A program made the position numbers and the translations under genes. The notes under the pieces are model-generated. The model searched no databases. It was given only the letters and a program-made list of their open reading frames with translations, and was not told where the DNA came from. 64,000 bases of DNA from Bacteroidia bacterium (GTDB lineage: Bacteria > Bacteroidota > Bacteroidia > SpSt-205), in assembly GCA_025059535.1 (NCBI GenBank), contig JANXCX010000011.1:186001-250000 (forward strand), given 5' to 3'. This document shows positions 28,692-35,178 of this stretch, in pieces. Within the stretch, counting starts at the first letter, position 1. Each line of letters opens with the position of its first letter.

Positions 28692-30230
28692 ATGACAAAC
28701 GCGTCTGAGGGTTTTCCAGCCAGCGTGTCGGAGCTCCAGGCCTATACGTACCCGGAGTTGCGCCGTCTGGCTCAGCAGGCGGGGATTCCTGACTATGCCC
28801 GCAAAAAGAAGACCGAGCTGATACGCCTGCTAGTAGAGGCCTATCAGGTTAAGGCTCAAGCCCCTACTTCAGAGAGTGAAGGGGAAGCACCAGCTGAACC
28901 CCCTGAAAAGCCGCTGCGCCAGCGCTTCAAACGCAAAGACCTGCCTGAGTTGGTCGGCTCTCCCTCTGTGGCCCTGCAAGAGGCCGAGCCGGCCAAAACG
29001 GCCGTCCCCGAAACGAATGGGCAATCCACTCAAGACCTGGCCCCTCCACCTAAGGCCACCCCTTCCACACCCCTCCGCGAGCCCGCTATAGGAGAAATCC
29101 TAGACAAACTTACTATCTCTGCCAGCGGCGTCTTGTGGATTGATAAGAAAACCTCCCATGCTTTTCTTCGCTCGCCTTTCTACAGCTACAAGCCCTCCCC
29201 AGATGATATATATGTGCCCTCAGCCTTAGTGCGTCGGTATGGGTTGCGCCCAGGCGACACGGTAGAGGGACTTATACGGCTTCCGCGGGAGGGCGAGCGC
29301 TATTACAGCCTAGTGGAAATTCAGCTCGTAAATGGCCAACCCCTGGCCTATCTCCACACCCGCAGTAGCCTAGAACACCTTACCCCGCTTTTTCCCACTG
29401 AACGCTTCCGGCTCTCGGAAGGTACGAATGACCTCTCGCTACGCGTAGTAGATCTCTTTGCCCCCATTGGTAAGGGGCAACGGGCCCTTATCGTAGCCCA
29501 GCCTAAGACCGGGAAGACTATCCTCCTCCAAAAAATCGCTAATGCTATTCTACGCAATCATCCAGAAGCGTATGTGATTGTGCTGCTTATTGACGAGCGG
29601 CCAGAGGAGGTTACCGACTTTGCGCGCAATGTGCCCGCTGAAGTAGTGGCCTCTACTTTTGATGAAGCAGCTGAGAAGCAGGTAGAAGTGGCTGAAATTG
29701 TGATAGAAAAAGCCAAGCGTCTAGCGGAGAGCAAAATAGATGTAGTAGTGCTTTTGGACTCTATTACCCGCTTAGCTCGGGCCTATAATGCGGCTACGCC
29801 TGTCTCAGGCCGCATCCTAACTGGCGGTATGGATTCCGCGGCCCTCCACAAACCTAAGCGGTTTTTCGGCGCCGCACGCAAAATAGAAGAAGGGGGGTCC
29901 CTCACCATCATCGCTACGGCCTTGATTGACACTGGCAGCCGCATGGACGAGGTCGTATTTGAAGAATTCAAAGGCACAGGTAACATGGAGCTTCAGCTTG
30001 ACCGCCAGCTGGCCAATAAGCGCATTTTCCCAGCCATCAATGTACTGGAGTCCGGCACGCGCCACGAGGAGCTGCTCCTTACTGATTGGGAGCTTTCTCG
30101 CCTATGGCTGCTGCGCCGATTCCTAGCCGAGATGAAGCCCATAGAAGCCACCGAGTTTCTGCTAGAGCGGATGAAACATACCCGCACGAATGAAGAATTT
30201 TTAGACCTTATGAACAAATGGTCGGAGTGA
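28692..30230 (+). CDS. rho: Transcription termination factor Rho
   Basis: 512 aa RNA-dependent hexameric helicase. N-terminal Rho-N helices (about 15-55), a Pro/Glu-rich linker (about 60-130) of the kind seen in Bacteroidota Rho, the cold-shock RNA-binding fold ([10 protein letters not shown] near 175), then the ATPase with P-K-T-G-K-T-I-L-L near 277 and [11 protein letters not shown] near 350. ATG 28692 is preferred to the TTG at 28635, which lies in the leader. Its last 13 nt overlap rlmN. Confidence 0.93.
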
Positions 30231-31243
30231 AGCCAGTATTCTGGACGGCTTCGCTAGAAGAGCTAAAACGCGAGTTTGACTCGGCAGGCCTTCCGGCTTA
30301 TCGCGCCCAGCAGGTATGGCAGTGGGTCTGGCAAAAAGGTATAGCTCAGCCCACCCAGATGACCGATCTTCCTCAGTCCCTGCGCCAGAAGCTGGAAGCC
30401 GAGTGGCGCTTTCCCCTGCCGCGGCTTCTCCACCGCCGGTCAAGCCAAGACGGCACCCAAAAGCTCCTCTGGGAACTGCCTGAAGGCGGTAGTGTAGAGA
30501 GTGTTTGGATTCCGCAAAGGCAACGCTTCACCCTCTGTGTCTCCTCTCAGATGGGCTGCAGTTTCAACTGCCGCTTCTGCGCCACCGGCCAGATGGGTCT
30601 AGAACGTCAGCTCAAAGGCTACGAAATCCTCCTTCAAGTCTATGGGGCTAAATTCCTCCTCGGTCTTCCCATAACTCATATCGTTTTCATGGGTATGGGG
30701 GAACCGCTTCTCAATTACTCGGCGGTGATGGAAGCCCTTACGGGGCTGACTCAGCGAATGGGCTTTAGTGCCCGCCGAATAACTATCTCTACCGTAGGCA
30801 TACCTAAAGGGATTGAGCGGCTGGCGGAGCGGCCTGAGCGCTTTGAGCTGGCTTTCTCCCTGCACAGCGCTATCCCTGAGAAACGCCAGGCGCTTATCCC
30901 CACCGCGGCCCATATAAGCTTAGAGAGTCTGCGCGCCGCCCTGGCTTACTACTGCCAGAAGCGGCGCGACTGGATTACGCTGGAATACGTTCTCCTTGCG
31001 AATATCAACGACGGCCCAGAAGATGTAGCGGCGCTTCGGGATTTTGTAGCTCCACCTTTAGCCGCTAAGGTAAACCTCATTGAGTATAACCCTACGCCGG
31101 GCTTACCTTTTCGGCCTTCGCCCCGCCTGAAGGAATTTCAGCGTGCGCTTTTGCGTCGGGGTCTTATCGCCACGATTCGCTACAGCCGTGGACGGGATAT
31201 TGCGGCAGGCTGCGGCCAACTGGCCCGCCAACTTGTATCTTAA
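30218..31243 (+). CDS. rlmN: 23S rRNA (A2503)-C2 / tRNA A37 methyltransferase RlmN
   Basis: 341 aa radical SAM enzyme that methylates C2 of A2503 in 23S rRNA and A37 of some tRNAs. Cluster motif C-S-F-N-C-R-F-C near 113-120, [10 protein letters not shown] near 154, S-T-V-G-I near 190, and the C-terminal Cys in A-G-C-G-Q near 334. The second catalytic Cys thus is present. ATG 30218 overlaps rho; a GTG at 30227 is an alternative. Confidence 0.93.
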
Positions 31244-31270: not shown

Positions 31271-31278
31271 TACCTTTG
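31271..31278 (+). promoter_or_regulatory. -7 box of the Fic-like gene
   Basis: TACCTTTG, 22 nt before ATG 31301. It is the longest leader in the set. Confidence 0.55.
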
Positions 31279-31300: not shown

Positions 31301-32749
31301 ATGAGTCAAATTCTATCTGCCCAGGGGTTAGGTTTTCGCACAGCGTGGCTTGATCTCCCCCTGACTCGGTGGGACCTTCTCCTGCCTTCGTGGAAAGGGC
31401 GCGCCCAATATCTAGAAGCGCAAAACCAGTTTCTTGCCTATCAGAGGGATGCTTTCTTGCATTGGGCGCGGGACTTTTTAGTGCTACAGGGGGTAGTGGG
31501 CTTTTCGCCTGAGGCCTGGTTGGCCTATGAGCGCAGTGGGCATGCCCTATGGAGCCTCCCCGCTAGCGGGGTTTTTCCTTCACCAGAAGCGGCTCATCAA
31601 GCGGTCCAAGGGCTCGCGACGGCGATGGCCCTCCTTCACAAGCAGGCCCAAGCCAGCCAACCGCTGGAAAGTGAAGGATTTATAGATCTTCTCCAGAAAG
31701 GGCTCGGCGCTAAAGTTGCGCTCCGCCAAGAGCCCCATAACGGCCCTTTACCCCTGCGCGCCATAAGCCCAGCTGAGGTAGAGAAAGCCTTTTCAGCCCT
31801 CCTGAGCGAAGTGGAAAATCAGCTGAAAGCTGGCGTTTCCCCCATAGCGGTAGCGGCTTGGGCGCACCATGCGCTCAGCCAAATTCGCCCCTTCGCCGAT
31901 GGGAATGCGCGCGCGGCTTTCCTCCTTACGCAGTATATCCTTTGGCGCGGTGAAATCCCCGGATGGTACCTCAAGCCTACCCAAAGGGTGGCGTACTACC
32001 AAGCCCTCCACGAAGCCGATAAAGGCGCCTTACAGCTCTGGGGCGACCTCTTCCTCACCGGCATCCAGCAAGCCCTCCTCACGGCGCTAAGCTGGGAACA
32101 TCCCCCCTTGGGTAACTTGGAGGAGAATATACAGGTCTTCAATCAACGCTTTTCGGACTGGCGCAGCCGCCATAGCCGAGAAAGGTCTCAAAGAATCATG
32201 AATCATCGCTACATGGTCTTTGACTATGTGGAAGAAATTCTTCGCAAAATAGCCAACGAGCTGGACGAAAAGCTCAAAGTAGAAGAAGGCCGGGGTACGC
32301 GCGCCCTCGTGGCTAAAGCCTACCCCGACTCCCCCTACTACTACCAGTTTACGACCGACATTATAGAATATGCCCGCCGCCATGGCTACTATTTCAATCG
32401 GGGCCTGCCACGCGGCTGGTTCAAGCTCAAATTCTCTCTCTCGGCTAATAAAAAATACCAGCTTGTATTCTCCCTTCACCATGCGGGCCATGACGACTCT
32501 ACGCTAGTGATTGGGGCGTTCCTTCATTTCTTAGAGCCCCTCAAGTATCAGCAGAAACGCGCGCGACGTCGCCGCAGTCCGCGCCGACGCGAAAAGGCCA
32601 TTTACCTTTTTGCCCCTCTTCCTTTCCCTTCTACACCCCTGGCCTTCTCCATAGAAAAAGATCCTCAGCCTGCCTGGAACCTCCTTGATGCCTATATCCA
32701 GCAGCATGTGGTACAAGCGATAGGCTTACTGGCGAATGAAATCTACTAA
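31301..32749 (+). CDS. Fic-fold protein with degenerate active site and unknown C-terminal half
   Basis: 482 aa. The helical Fic core spans about 90-260. The Fic motif H-P-F-x-D-G-N-G-R reads R196-P-F-A-D-G-N-A-R here, so the catalytic His is Arg196 and the second Gly is Ala203. The rest of the loop, including D200, G201, N202 and R204, is kept. Residues 275-482 form a second part: a helical segment, then an alpha/beta region (Y-Y-Y-Q-F-T-T-D near 347, F-K-L-K-F-S-L near 372), and a very basic stretch R-A-R-R-R-R-S-P-R-R-R near 422-432. I do not recognise this second half. AMP transfer by the canonical mechanism is unlikely; a nucleotide-binding or regulatory role is possible. DUF3822 follows by 2 nt. 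Confidence 0.65.
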   Translation: MSQILSAQGLGFRTAWLDLPLTRWDLLLPSWKGRAQYLEAQNQFLAYQRDAFLHWARDFLVLQGVVGFSPEAWLAYERSGHALWSLPASGVFPSPEAAHQAVQGLATAMALLHKQAQASQPLESEGFIDLLQKGLGAKVALRQEPHNGPLPLRAISPAEVEKAFSALLSEVENQLKAGVSPIAVAAWAHHALSQIRPFADGNARAAFLLTQYILWRGEIPGWYLKPTQRVAYYQALHEADKGALQLWGDLFLTGIQQALLTALSWEHPPLGNLEENIQVFNQRFSDWRSRHSRERSQRIMNHRYMVFDYVEEILRKIANELDEKLKVEEGRGTRALVAKAYPDSPYYYQFTTDIIEYARRHGYYFNRGLPRGWFKLKFSLSANKKYQLVFSLHHAGHDDSTLVIGAFLHFLEPLKYQQKRARRRRSPRRREKAIYLFAPLPFPSTPLAFSIEKDPQPAWNLLDAYIQQHVVQAIGLLANEIY

Positions 32750-32751
32750 GA

Positions 32752-33636
32752 ATGAGTGCGCCTAGGCCGCTTACACCGCAGGACATCTACACCTCTTCAG
32801 CTTTCAACCCCACCTCGCTAAGCATTTATCATTTAGGGGTTTATACCGAAGCCGACCACCTGCTCTATGCCATCTCCAACATGCAGCACGAACTTCTCTT
32901 CCTCCGGCTGTACAAGAATCGGGATGGTCTAGAACTTAGTCAGTTTGTGGAGCAGGTCTGGCAGCAAGATGAATTCCTGCGCAAGCGTCATGGGAATGTG
33001 CTCTGGCTGACCGATAGCGATAAATGGATGGTAGTACCCGCCGAATTCGTACCCGATGGCCAGGAAGTGGAATATATTCACGCCTATTACGAATATACCC
33101 CATCAAACCTGCAAAAGTTCTACCATATTCGCAAGGAAATCTGGAAGCCCTCTAGCGCAGCTTTTTTATACTTACTACCCCTTCCGCTTCATGAATATCT
33201 CCAGGTACGCGGCTGGGCGCCTCACCACATTGCCTTTCGGTACGTGCAATTGAGCCAGCATCTGCTGCAGCAATATAGCCAGCTGCCTTATGGGGGAATT
33301 GTGTGGCTCTTTTTGGGTAGCTTCTACTACGTACTTTTCGCAGGAGAGATGTTGGCTTTTGTGAACAAATTCCAGGCGGCGACGGCAGAAGATGTACTCT
33401 ATTACGTGCAGGGCCTCCATAACCTTTTAGGCATAGATAAAACTCGCGTGCATATCTCTGTGGCCGGCTATTCGGGCCTCAAGCCGTATGTGGCTACAGT
33501 TTTTTACAGGTTTTTCACAAATGGCTATAAGGATTTATCCAAGCTTTATCCGGCTCCTCCTACTTTGCGCGAGGTAGGCATAGGCATGGAGGATGTTCTT
33601 CCCTTCACCTTTGTAGGTGCGGATTCTACAGGGTAA
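32752..33636 (+). CDS. DUF3822 family protein
   Basis: 294 aa. Conserved Bacteroidota protein of unknown function; the family is thought to have an ASKHA-like fold. Here the two halves are seen as L-S-I-Y-H-L-G-V-Y near 25 and H-I-S-V-A-G-Y-S-G near 238, the latter a phosphate-loop-like region. It overlaps rsmD by 20 nt, the usual neighbour in this phylum, so a role beside 16S rRNA modification is often guessed but not shown. Confidence 0.8.
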   Translation: MSAPRPLTPQDIYTSSAFNPTSLSIYHLGVYTEADHLLYAISNMQHELLFLRLYKNRDGLELSQFVEQVWQQDEFLRKRHGNVLWLTDSDKWMVVPAEFVPDGQEVEYIHAYYEYTPSNLQKFYHIRKEIWKPSSAAFLYLLPLPLHEYLQVRGWAPHHIAFRYVQLSQHLLQQYSQLPYGGIVWLFLGSFYYVLFAGEMLAFVNKFQAATAEDVLYYVQGLHNLLGIDKTRVHISVAGYSGLKPYVATVFYRFFTNGYKDLSKLYPAPPTLREVGIGMEDVLPFTFVGADSTG

Positions 33637-34153
33637 GTGGCGCGGGCGCGCTATCCCTTTTCCGGCGGGTACCCCGACGCGCCCGCTTACGGGAAAGGCG
33701 CGCGAAGCCCTTTTTCAAATCCTTGCCCACCACTGGCGCCTGACCGATAGCTGCGTACTAGATCTTTTTGCAGGCTCGGGAAGTGTGGGCCTAGAATTTC
33801 TCTCTCGCGGCGCCGCTCAGGTGGTATTTGTAGAGGTTCATCCAATAGCAGCCTCCCACCTGCGTCGGGTGGTGGAAGCCTGGGCCGTGGCTGACCGCGC
33901 GCACGTTTACGAGGAGGATGTACTGGCTTTCTTGCGGCGGAGCAGCACGCCTATGGACTTTATTTTTGCGGGGCCGCCCTTCCGCTACTGGCCTAAGCGC
34001 ACCGTAGCCGAACTCATCCTCACCCGGAATTGGCTCAAGCCCGGCGGCTGCTTCATCCTTGAGCACCCGCCGTATGAGGATTATAGCGACCTGGCGGGCT
34101 TCTGGCAAAAGCGCCGCTATGTCACCAGCTGCCTGAGTTTTTTTGTGGCATGA
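33617..34153 (+). CDS. rsmD: 16S rRNA (guanine966-N2)-methyltransferase RsmD
   Basis: 178 aa SAM methyltransferase. N-terminal R-I-L-Q-G-K-W-R-G-R, R-P-L-T-G-K-A-R-E-A-L-F near 22-33, SAM loop D-L-F-A-G-S-G-S-V-G-L-E near 49, and E-V-H-P near 73. The catalytic D-P-P-Y motif reads G119-P-P-F, so the first acidic residue is missing. GTG start at 33617 overlaps DUF3822; ATGA overlap with the next gene. Length is normal. Confidence 0.88.
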   Translation: MRILQGKWRGRAIPFPAGTPTRPLTGKAREALFQILAHHWRLTDSCVLDLFAGSGSVGLEFLSRGAAQVVFVEVHPIAASHLRRVVEAWAVADRAHVYEEDVLAFLRRSSTPMDFIFAGPPFRYWPKRTVAELILTRNWLKPGGCFILEHPPYEDYSDLAGFWQKRRYVTSCLSFFVA

Positions 34154-35178
34154 CGGTACGCTGGGGGTGGGGTGGAGTTTTAGCGACTTGGCGCATGCTG
34201 CGCTGGTCTCGGGTGCGTCAAGGCCTTCAGTCGCTCCTCTCTTATTATCGGGCCCGCTGGGGCCTCGGATGGCATCCACCTGCCTACCCGCTTTTCCTCA
34301 GCATAGAACCAACTACCGCCTGTAATCTGCGATGCCCGCTCTGTCTATCGGGCACGCGGGGCTTCACGCGTCCTAAGGGCACCCTTGACCCCGAGCTTTT
34401 GGCCCAGCTTCTTCAAGAACTGCACCCCTACCTATGGGGCGTGCTTTTCTACTTCCAAGGGGAACCGCTGCTTCATCCAGCCCTTCCCCAGCTTATCTCC
34501 TACGCCAGCCGTTATCGCCTCCTTACCTCCCTCAGCACTAACGGCCACCTCCTTACCGAAGAACGCTGCTACCAGCTTATCCTGGCAGGACTAACCCATA
34601 TTCGCATCTCCTTAGATGGCATGACACCCACCTCCTACGCTCAGTACCGAAGGGGTGGACATCTGGAAGAGGTGCTGGTAGGTATAGCTCGCCTGCTTTC
34701 CCTGCGGCAAGCCTTACGCAGCCTTTTCCCACTTGTGGAGGTCCAATTCATTGTTTTCCGTCATAACCTAGCCGAGATTGAAGCCTTTCGGCGGTGGGCT
34801 AAATCCCATCCCATAGATCGTATCCGCCTCAAAACGGCCCATTTGCCTGAGCTTACCCCCGCTGCCTATGCGGAATGGATACCACCTGAGTTTTCCCGTT
34901 ATGCCCCTGATGCCACCGGGCATCCTCGCCTTAGGAAGCCTCCGCCTAATCGCTGCTGGCGCCTATGGCGGGCCACGGAAATCACCTGGGACGGTCGGGT
35001 CGTACCCTGCTGCTTTGATAAGGACGCGCGCTATATGTTTGGCCAGCTCGGCAAAAGGGGGTTCACCTCCATATGGCGCGGGCCCCAAGCAGAAGCTTTC
35101 CGCCGCCAAGTATTCCAAAACCGAGAAAGTATAGACATTTGCCAAAACTGCACGGAGGGCATCCGACCATGGGCATAA
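34150..35178 (+). CDS. Radical SAM / SPASM protein of unknown substrate
   Basis: 342 aa. The radical SAM cluster C-N-L-R-C-P-L-C lies near 58-65, followed by G-E-P-L-L-H near 102 and S-L-D-G near 155. A C-terminal SPASM-like domain has C-W-R-L-W near 279, W-D-G-R-V-V-P-C-C-F-D near 289-299 and C-Q-N-C near 335, enough for one auxiliary cluster. Such proteins modify peptides or build cofactors; here no peptide gene is adjacent. It sits between rsmD and psd, so a role with membrane lipid or envelope is possible but not shown. Confidence 0.75.
   Translation: MTVRWGWGGVLATWRMLRWSRVRQGLQSLLSYYRARWGLGWHPPAYPLFLSIEPTTACNLRCPLCLSGTRGFTRPKGTLDPELLAQLLQELHPYLWGVLFYFQGEPLLHPALPQLISYASRYRLLTSLSTNGHLLTEERCYQLILAGLTHIRISLDGMTPTSYAQYRRGGHLEEVLVGIARLLSLRQALRSLFPLVEVQFIVFRHNLAEIEAFRRWAKSHPIDRIRLKTAHLPELTPAAYAEWIPPEFSRYAPDATGHPRLRKPPPNRCWRLWRATEITWDGRVVPCCFDKDARYMFGQLGKRGFTSIWRGPQAEAFRRQVFQNRESIDICQNCTEGIRPWA

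What the first reader, a model, noticed from the sequence alone, without database searches (positions are those of the whole stretch)
31301..32749. Fic-fold protein with Arg in place of the catalytic His, fused to an unknown domain
The motif reads R-P-F-A-D-G-N-A-R: the phosphate-binding part (D, G, N, R) is kept but the general-base His is Arg196 and a loop Gly is Ala203. About 200 C-terminal residues with a very basic stretch (about 422-432) match nothing I recognise. A kept nucleotide loop with a changed base suggests altered chemistry or a binding-only role. It sits right before DUF3822 and rsmD, so ribosome or rRNA work is possible.
Basis: partly seen in the sequence, partly recalled or inferred. 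Interest (0 to 1): 0.6.

Follow-up and report, generated by a model that had tools for sequence, protein, structure and literature searches.

The report
Disarmed Fic protein with unknown tail
In a genus of Bacteroidia known here from metagenome bins, a protein descended from a mobile protein-modifying (Fic) enzyme has lost its catalytic machinery in every genome seen, yet is always kept at the same place because an unidentified tail domain, rather than the enzyme, now appears to be the working part.

Summary
The 482-aa ORF at 31301-32749 has a Fic domain (Pfam E 6e-9) with R-P-F-A-D-G-N-A-R and a C-terminal domain unknown to Pfam, NCBIfam, PHROGs or the PDB. It is not a sequencing error: all 11 genomes of the genus carry an orthologue (56-63% identity) in the order rho-rlmN-Fic-DUF3822-rsmD. 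Arg replaces His in 10 of 11; the eleventh has His but lost the motif Asp and Asn. Fourteen proteins from other genera with the same N-Fic-C architecture have the intact motif, Glu and flap. Constraint has switched: in intact relatives the Fic domain is better conserved than the tail; here the tail is better conserved (72% against 59%, core 86%). The nearest relatives of this tail are free-standing proteins with no Fic domain (99/97 support). Best reading: a mobile, presumably active Fic enzyme domesticated into a core-gene pseudoenzyme whose tail does the work. The tail carries a conserved basic loop (net +6 to +9); binding to RNA or the ribosome is only a guess. New variant of a known kind.

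The parts
31301..32749 (+). Degenerate Fic protein with C-terminal domain, 482 aa
   Evidence: orthologues in 11/11 genomes of the genus
31271..31278 (+). TACCTTTG, matching the Bacteroidota -7 promoter element TAnnTTTG, 30 nt before the ATG
   Evidence: TAC(C/T)TTTG 26-34 nt upstream of the ATG in 11/11 orthologues; expected 0.03 per 60 nt. Promoter function is inferred
31301..31762 (+). N-terminal helical part, residues 1-154; inhibitory-helix equivalent (LQG) included, flap deleted
   Evidence: alignment to canonical relatives
31487..31489 (+). Gln63 codon, where 14/14 intact relatives have the inhibitory Glu (AIETGxxE)
31763..32086 (+). Fic domain proper, residues 155-262
   Evidence: Pfam PF02661 E 6e-9; phmmer to FICD E 1e-8; top Foldseek hits of the weak full-length model are Fic proteins
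31886..31912 (+). Fic motif R196-P-F-A-D-G-N-A203-R204 (His to Arg, second Gly to Ala)
31919..31921 (+). Phe207 codon, where 14/14 intact relatives have the second motif Arg
32123..32746 (+). C-terminal domain (CTD), residues 275-482: two helices, five-stranded antiparallel sheet, C-terminal helix (predicted)
   Evidence: AlphaFold2 pLDDT 78.8, pTM 0.73; no match by sequence or fold
32537..32602 (+). Basic loop, residues 413-434, net charge about +9
   Evidence: +6 to +9 in 11/11 orthologues; absent in most intact relatives, partly present in the free-standing CTDs
30218..31243 (+). rlmN, constant upstream neighbour
   Evidence: TIGR00048 over cut-off; synteny
32752..33636 (+). DUF3822 gene, constant downstream neighbour (2 bp gap)
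   Evidence: Pfam PF12864; synteny
33617..34153 (+). rsmD, overlaps DUF3822
   Evidence: TIGR00095 E 1e-33, just under its cut-off; Pfam PF03602

Best explanation
This is a domesticated Fic pseudoenzyme. Its ancestor was a class II (self-inhibited) Fic protein of N-Fic-CTD architecture, of a kind that occurs sporadically in Bacteroidota and on phage contigs and is probably an AMPylating toxin, defence or regulatory enzyme. In the ancestor of this genus the gene settled between rlmN and the old DUF3822-rsmD pair, gained or kept its own promoter-like element, and lost catalysis (His to Arg, second Gly to Ala, second Arg to Phe), its inhibitory Glu and its target-docking flap. The Fic fold is kept as a scaffold. 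The CTD, with an added basic loop, became the selected part and works by binding a partner, possibly RNA, the ribosome or another acidic partner. Shown by sequence: homology, losses, synteny, switch of constraint, relationship to Fic-less CTD proteins. Inferred: no AMPylation, binding function. Guess: the identity of the partner.
For: (1) Key positions, 11 orthologues against 14 intact relatives: His site R10/H1 vs H14; second Gly A11 vs G14; second Arg F10/L1 vs R14; inhibitory Glu Q11 vs E14; flap deleted in all vs present in all. (2) Strict synteny in 11/11 genomes, against a sporadic presence of intact N-Fic-CTD in Bacteroidia (5 of 395 genomes). (3) Switch of constraint: mean pairwise identity Fic 0.59 / CTD 0.72 (core 0.86) in the genus; 0.56 / 0.29 in intact relatives, 0.66 / 0.42 in the closer nine. 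CTD core identity approaches that of the C-terminal part of Rho, mostly 85-91% in pairwise tblastn to the window. (4) CTD tree: orthologues plus Fic-less CTD proteins of G059 and G240 form one clade (99/97) nested in intact proteins; leaving the Fic-less ones out is rejected at AU p 0.019. (5) Only one Fic match per genome in 10 of 11 genomes. (6) Basic loop conserved. (7) Promoter element conserved.
Against: The motif segment is still the best-conserved part of the Fic domain in the genus (0.74), so the pocket may be kept for a ligand. Asp/Glu, Asn and first Arg persist in 10 of 11. Published work argues that His loss need not abolish all activity (PMC4454073). Synonymous changes are saturated, so dN/dS could not be used. 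No experiment bears on a binding partner. The free-standing CTD proteins sit on a long branch (1.92) and lack the His-His-x-Gly of the CTD. Activity of the intact relatives is inferred from motif only.
Confidence: 0.7

Rival explanations
1. Ligand-binding pseudo-Fic: the pocket still binds a nucleotide or other phosphate ligand, with Arg196 and Arg204 holding phosphates, and acts as a sensor that switches the CTD.
For: RP[FY]x[DE]GNAR kept in 10 of 11; R204, G201 and A203 in 11 of 11; the motif segment is the best-conserved part of the Fic domain.
Against: The second Arg, which in Fic enzymes binds the gamma-phosphate, and the flap are lost in all 11; one orthologue has HPYAIGSAR. Beps with Glu at the second Gly are thought unable to bind triphosphate (PMC8401265).
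Confidence: 0.17
2. Enzyme with altered chemistry: Arg196 takes part in a different transfer, as Doc phosphorylates and AnkX transfers phosphocholine.
For: Fido proteins do other chemistry; a Doc clade with His to Gln is known (PMC4454073).
Against: Arg is a poor general base (general knowledge); D and N are not invariant; flap and second Arg are lost.
Confidence: 0.06
3. In-trans regulator (antitoxin-like) of an intact Fic enzyme in the same cell.
For: Fic1 antagonises the degenerate Fic2 in Campylobacter fetus (PMC5651007).
Against: 10 of 11 genomes of the genus, including a single-contig one at 99% completeness, hold no other Fic; the inhibitory Glu is lost.
Confidence: 0.03
4. Decaying toxin gene: a remnant drifting towards loss.
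For: Several catalytic positions lost; N-terminal part poorly conserved.
Against: Open in 11 of 11 genomes at 56-63% identity with identical synteny, conserved promoter element and a CTD core 86% identical.
Confidence: 0.02

Closest known systems
Class II Fic adenylyltransferases (FICD/HYPE, SoFic, Bacteroides-type Fic 3cuc)
   Same: Fic fold and motif region; phmmer/hmmsearch matches; PADLOC SoFic E 5e-10
   Different: Catalytic His, second Gly, second Arg, inhibitory Glu and flap all lost; different C-terminal domain
Degenerate-motif Fic/Doc proteins: C. fetus Fic2, Khater and Mohanty F3 and D2 clades, Bartonella BepC and Bep8-type Beps (PMC5651007, PMC4454073, PMC8401265)
   Same: Non-canonical motif; F3 and Fic2 also lose the second Gly and second Arg, F3 with a modified inhibitory helix; BepC works as a binder without known catalysis
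   Different: Fic2 and F3 keep His, D2 has Gln; the characterised ones are toxins or effectors. Here His is Arg, the gene is a fixed core gene, and the tail is conserved more than Fic
Intact N-Fic-CTD proteins of Bacteroidota (for example L054, L056) and phage contigs (L089, L090)
   Same: Full-length architecture and the same CTD
   Different: 14/14 intact motif, Glu and flap; sporadic; most lack the basic loop; Fic conserved more than CTD
Free-standing CTD proteins of G059 and G240 (L051 6634-7272, L052 8394-9032)
   Same: Sister CTDs (99/97); share KYQxKR; no active Fic
   Different: No Fic domain at all; located near a phosphoglycerate-mutase-like gene and an outer-membrane-type gene

Membership tests
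Fic/DOC family (PF02661) | Profile match over the curated cut-off | tested here: met
   37 bits against 24
Fic adenylyltransferase (enzyme) | Catalytic His in HxFx[DE]GN[GK]R | tested here: not met
   Arg in 10/11; the one with His lacks Asp and Asn
Fic adenylyltransferase (enzyme) | Second motif Arg (GNGRxxR) for gamma-phosphate | tested here: not met
   Phe in 10, Leu in 1
Fic adenylyltransferase (enzyme) | Beta-hairpin flap for target docking | tested here: not met
   GxFKxxxNNPxRxDG deleted in all 11
Fic adenylyltransferase (enzyme) | AMP transfer in vitro | not testable with these tools
   needs an assay
Class II Fic (self-inhibited) | N-terminal inhibitory Glu | tested here: not met
   Gln63 in 11/11 where 14/14 relatives have Glu
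Fic toxin-antitoxin or SoFic defence system | Active toxin motif, mobile distribution | tested here: not met
   Motif lost; fixed locus in 11/11 genomes
N-Fic-CTD architecture family described here | Collinear N-terminal helices, Fic, CTD over full length | tested here: met
Any known domain for residues 275-482 | Significant sequence or fold match | tested here: not met
   Pfam, NCBIfam, PHROGs, PADLOC and PDB sequence search give no significant match; Foldseek best E 5.7e-3 with TM 0.29

The most novel reading that the evidence does not exclude
A post-translational-modification enzyme of mobile or toxin origin has been exapted into an essential, non-catalytic housekeeping protein, whose previously unrecognised tail domain binds RNA, the ribosome or another core complex, and whose Fic pocket may serve as a ligand sensor.
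Probability: 0.2. Interest if true: 0.75.

Novelty: new variant of a known kind. Interest (0 to 1): 0.45.

Why it matters
Most Fic proteins studied are toxins, effectors or regulators whose identity rests on the HPF motif. This clade shows Fic catalysis, self-inhibition and target docking dismantled together while the protein becomes a fixed core gene, with selection moving to an unknown tail domain that also exists alone. That defines a new domain worth a structure, and gives a natural test of what the tail does in active Fic proteins. Family searches name this protein 'Fic', which would wrongly imply AMPylation.

Tried and rejected
Sequencing error: rejected, 10 of 11 genomes. Chance motif: rejected; note that SusD proteins carry a look-alike RPYxDGNG. 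AlphaFold2 of the full protein on 3 sequences was poor (pLDDT 43); its Foldseek hits only confirm a Fic core. Foldseek of the better CTD model gave Med17 C-terminus, CapZ and RNA-phage coat proteins, query-normalised TM 0.3 or less: shared sheet-plus-helix topology, not homology. Viral scans with the genus-plus-relatives CTD alignment and with an intact Bacteroidia protein found no relative; one with the L089 protein found only itself; plasmid search with an intact CTD found none. dN/dS failed from saturation. Intermediates in the order of G059: only one further Fic-length match, not studied further. The same family and order as the window: no homologue, but both genomes are incomplete (66 and 77%). 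Papers: no description of a His-to-Arg Fic clade found in the open library; absence there is weak evidence.

Full report
The observation. The ORF at 31301-32749 (+) encodes 482 aa. Pfam finds one domain, Fic (PF02661), at 155-214 with 37 bits against a cut-off of 24, and nothing in the C-terminal half. phmmer aligns 157-245 to human FICD at E 1e-8, with Arg196 opposite the catalytic His.

Not an error. All ten other genomes of the genus hold a full-length orthologue at 56-63% identity. Two are recorded as Bacteroidia metagenome bins. Arg stands at the His position in 10 of 11. The eleventh, L013, reads HPYAIGSAR: His present, Asp and Asn gone, and the codons differ by several bases, so it is not a single miscall. 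The order rho-rlmN-Fic-DUF3822 is kept in all 11 and continues to rsmD wherever the contig reaches that far. TAC(C/T)TTTG, matching the Bacteroidota -7 promoter element (known to me from the literature, function not tested), lies 26-34 nt before the start codon in 11 of 11. DUF3822 next to rsmD is older than this arrangement, being found in other Bacteroidia where this Fic protein was not found.

More is lost than the His. Searches with the C-terminal domain found 14 further full-length proteins of the same N-Fic-CTD architecture in Bacteroidia and other classes of the phylum. All 14 have HP[FY]xDGNGRxxR, the inhibitory Glu in AIETGxxE and the flap GxFKxxxNNPxRxDG. In the 11 orthologues the second Gly is Ala (11), the second Arg is Phe or Leu (11), the Glu is Gln (11) and the flap is deleted (11). 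The roles of these parts are from the literature: the second Arg binds the gamma-phosphate and pairs with the inhibitory Glu, and the flap docks the target (PMC8401265, PMC5651007). The joint loss of second Gly and second Arg with a modified inhibitory helix has a precedent in Khater and Mohanty's F3 clade (PMC4454073).

Selection moved to the tail. In intact relatives the Fic domain is better conserved than the CTD (0.56 against 0.29; for the nine closer ones 0.66 against 0.42). In this genus it is the reverse (0.59 against 0.72, CTD core 338-412 0.86). The C-terminal part of Rho, a core gene, mostly runs at 85-91% in pairwise tblastn to the window. Synonymous sites are saturated, so this rests on protein conservation alone.

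The tail exists without Fic. Two genomes of another family (G059, G240) encode the CTD alone, as a 213-aa protein, and hold no Fic match anywhere. In the CTD tree these and the 11 orthologues form one clade (99/97), nested among intact proteins; a tree that unites the orthologues with L053/L054 and leaves the free-standing ones out is rejected at p 0.019. The free-standing pair is on a long branch, so this is good but not final. Both share a basic KYQxKR segment; in the genus the loop carries +6 to +9 net charge.

What the tail is. AlphaFold2 on five sequences gives pLDDT 78.8 and pTM 0.73: two helices, a five-stranded antiparallel sheet and a C-terminal helix. No convincing relative in the PDB or among viral proteins, and none by sequence.

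Origin and function. Intact proteins of this architecture are rare and scattered in Bacteroidia (5 of 395 genomes) and two sit on phage contigs, near a major capsid gene (L089) and near a terminase gene (L090). Their Fic part matches SoFic and candidate defence models. This fits a mobile, presumably active Fic protein turned into a fixed, inactive core protein. Ten of 11 genomes have no other Fic, so a role as partner of an active Fic is unlikely. I therefore favour a pseudoenzyme scaffold carrying a binding domain. The partner is unknown; the basic loop and the rRNA-methylation neighbours make RNA or the ribosome a reasonable first guess, about one in four.

Novelty. Fic and Doc proteins with degenerate motifs are known, including loss of His to Gln in a Doc clade. 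A His-to-Arg Fic clade with fixed synteny and a reversed pattern of constraint was not found in the papers I could search. I rate it a new variant of a known kind.

Noticed in passing
L028 1087-2073 (+): An unrelated Fic protein of another Bacteroidia genome has R-P-F-S-A-G-N-G-R: a second, independent His-to-Arg change, with Asp to Ala as well.
   Followed up: partly
L089 3935-5401; L090 3084-4562: Intact Fic-CTD proteins on IMG/VR contigs, one near a phage major capsid E gene, one near a terminase gpA gene with a possible AbiEi-type antitoxin gene (E 3e-6, below cut-off) close by: possible phage-borne cargo.
   Followed up: partly
L055 2378-4120 (+): An intact Fic-CTD protein with an extra N-terminal segment of about 90 residues that looks like a DNA-binding or addiction-type domain; no Pfam match.
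   Followed up: no
L084 3388-4864; L087 4515-5919: Two Fic-CTD genes in other genomes of the phylum are split over two reading frames, suggesting that intact members are readily lost (or assembly errors).
   Followed up: no
L172-L175, L177, L178, L194, L195, L197: Proteins that look like SusD carry R-P-[FY]-x-D-G-N-G, a look-alike of the changed Fic motif that can mislead motif searches.
   Followed up: partly
L051 6634-7272; L052 8394-9032: The free-standing CTD protein lies between a phosphoglycerate-mutase-like gene plus a small gene and an outer-membrane-type gene in both genomes.
   Followed up: partly
window 34150-35178: A radical SAM/SPASM protein of no assigned subfamily follows rsmD in the same direction; it matches putative metalloenzyme maturase models well below their cut-offs.
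   Followed up: no
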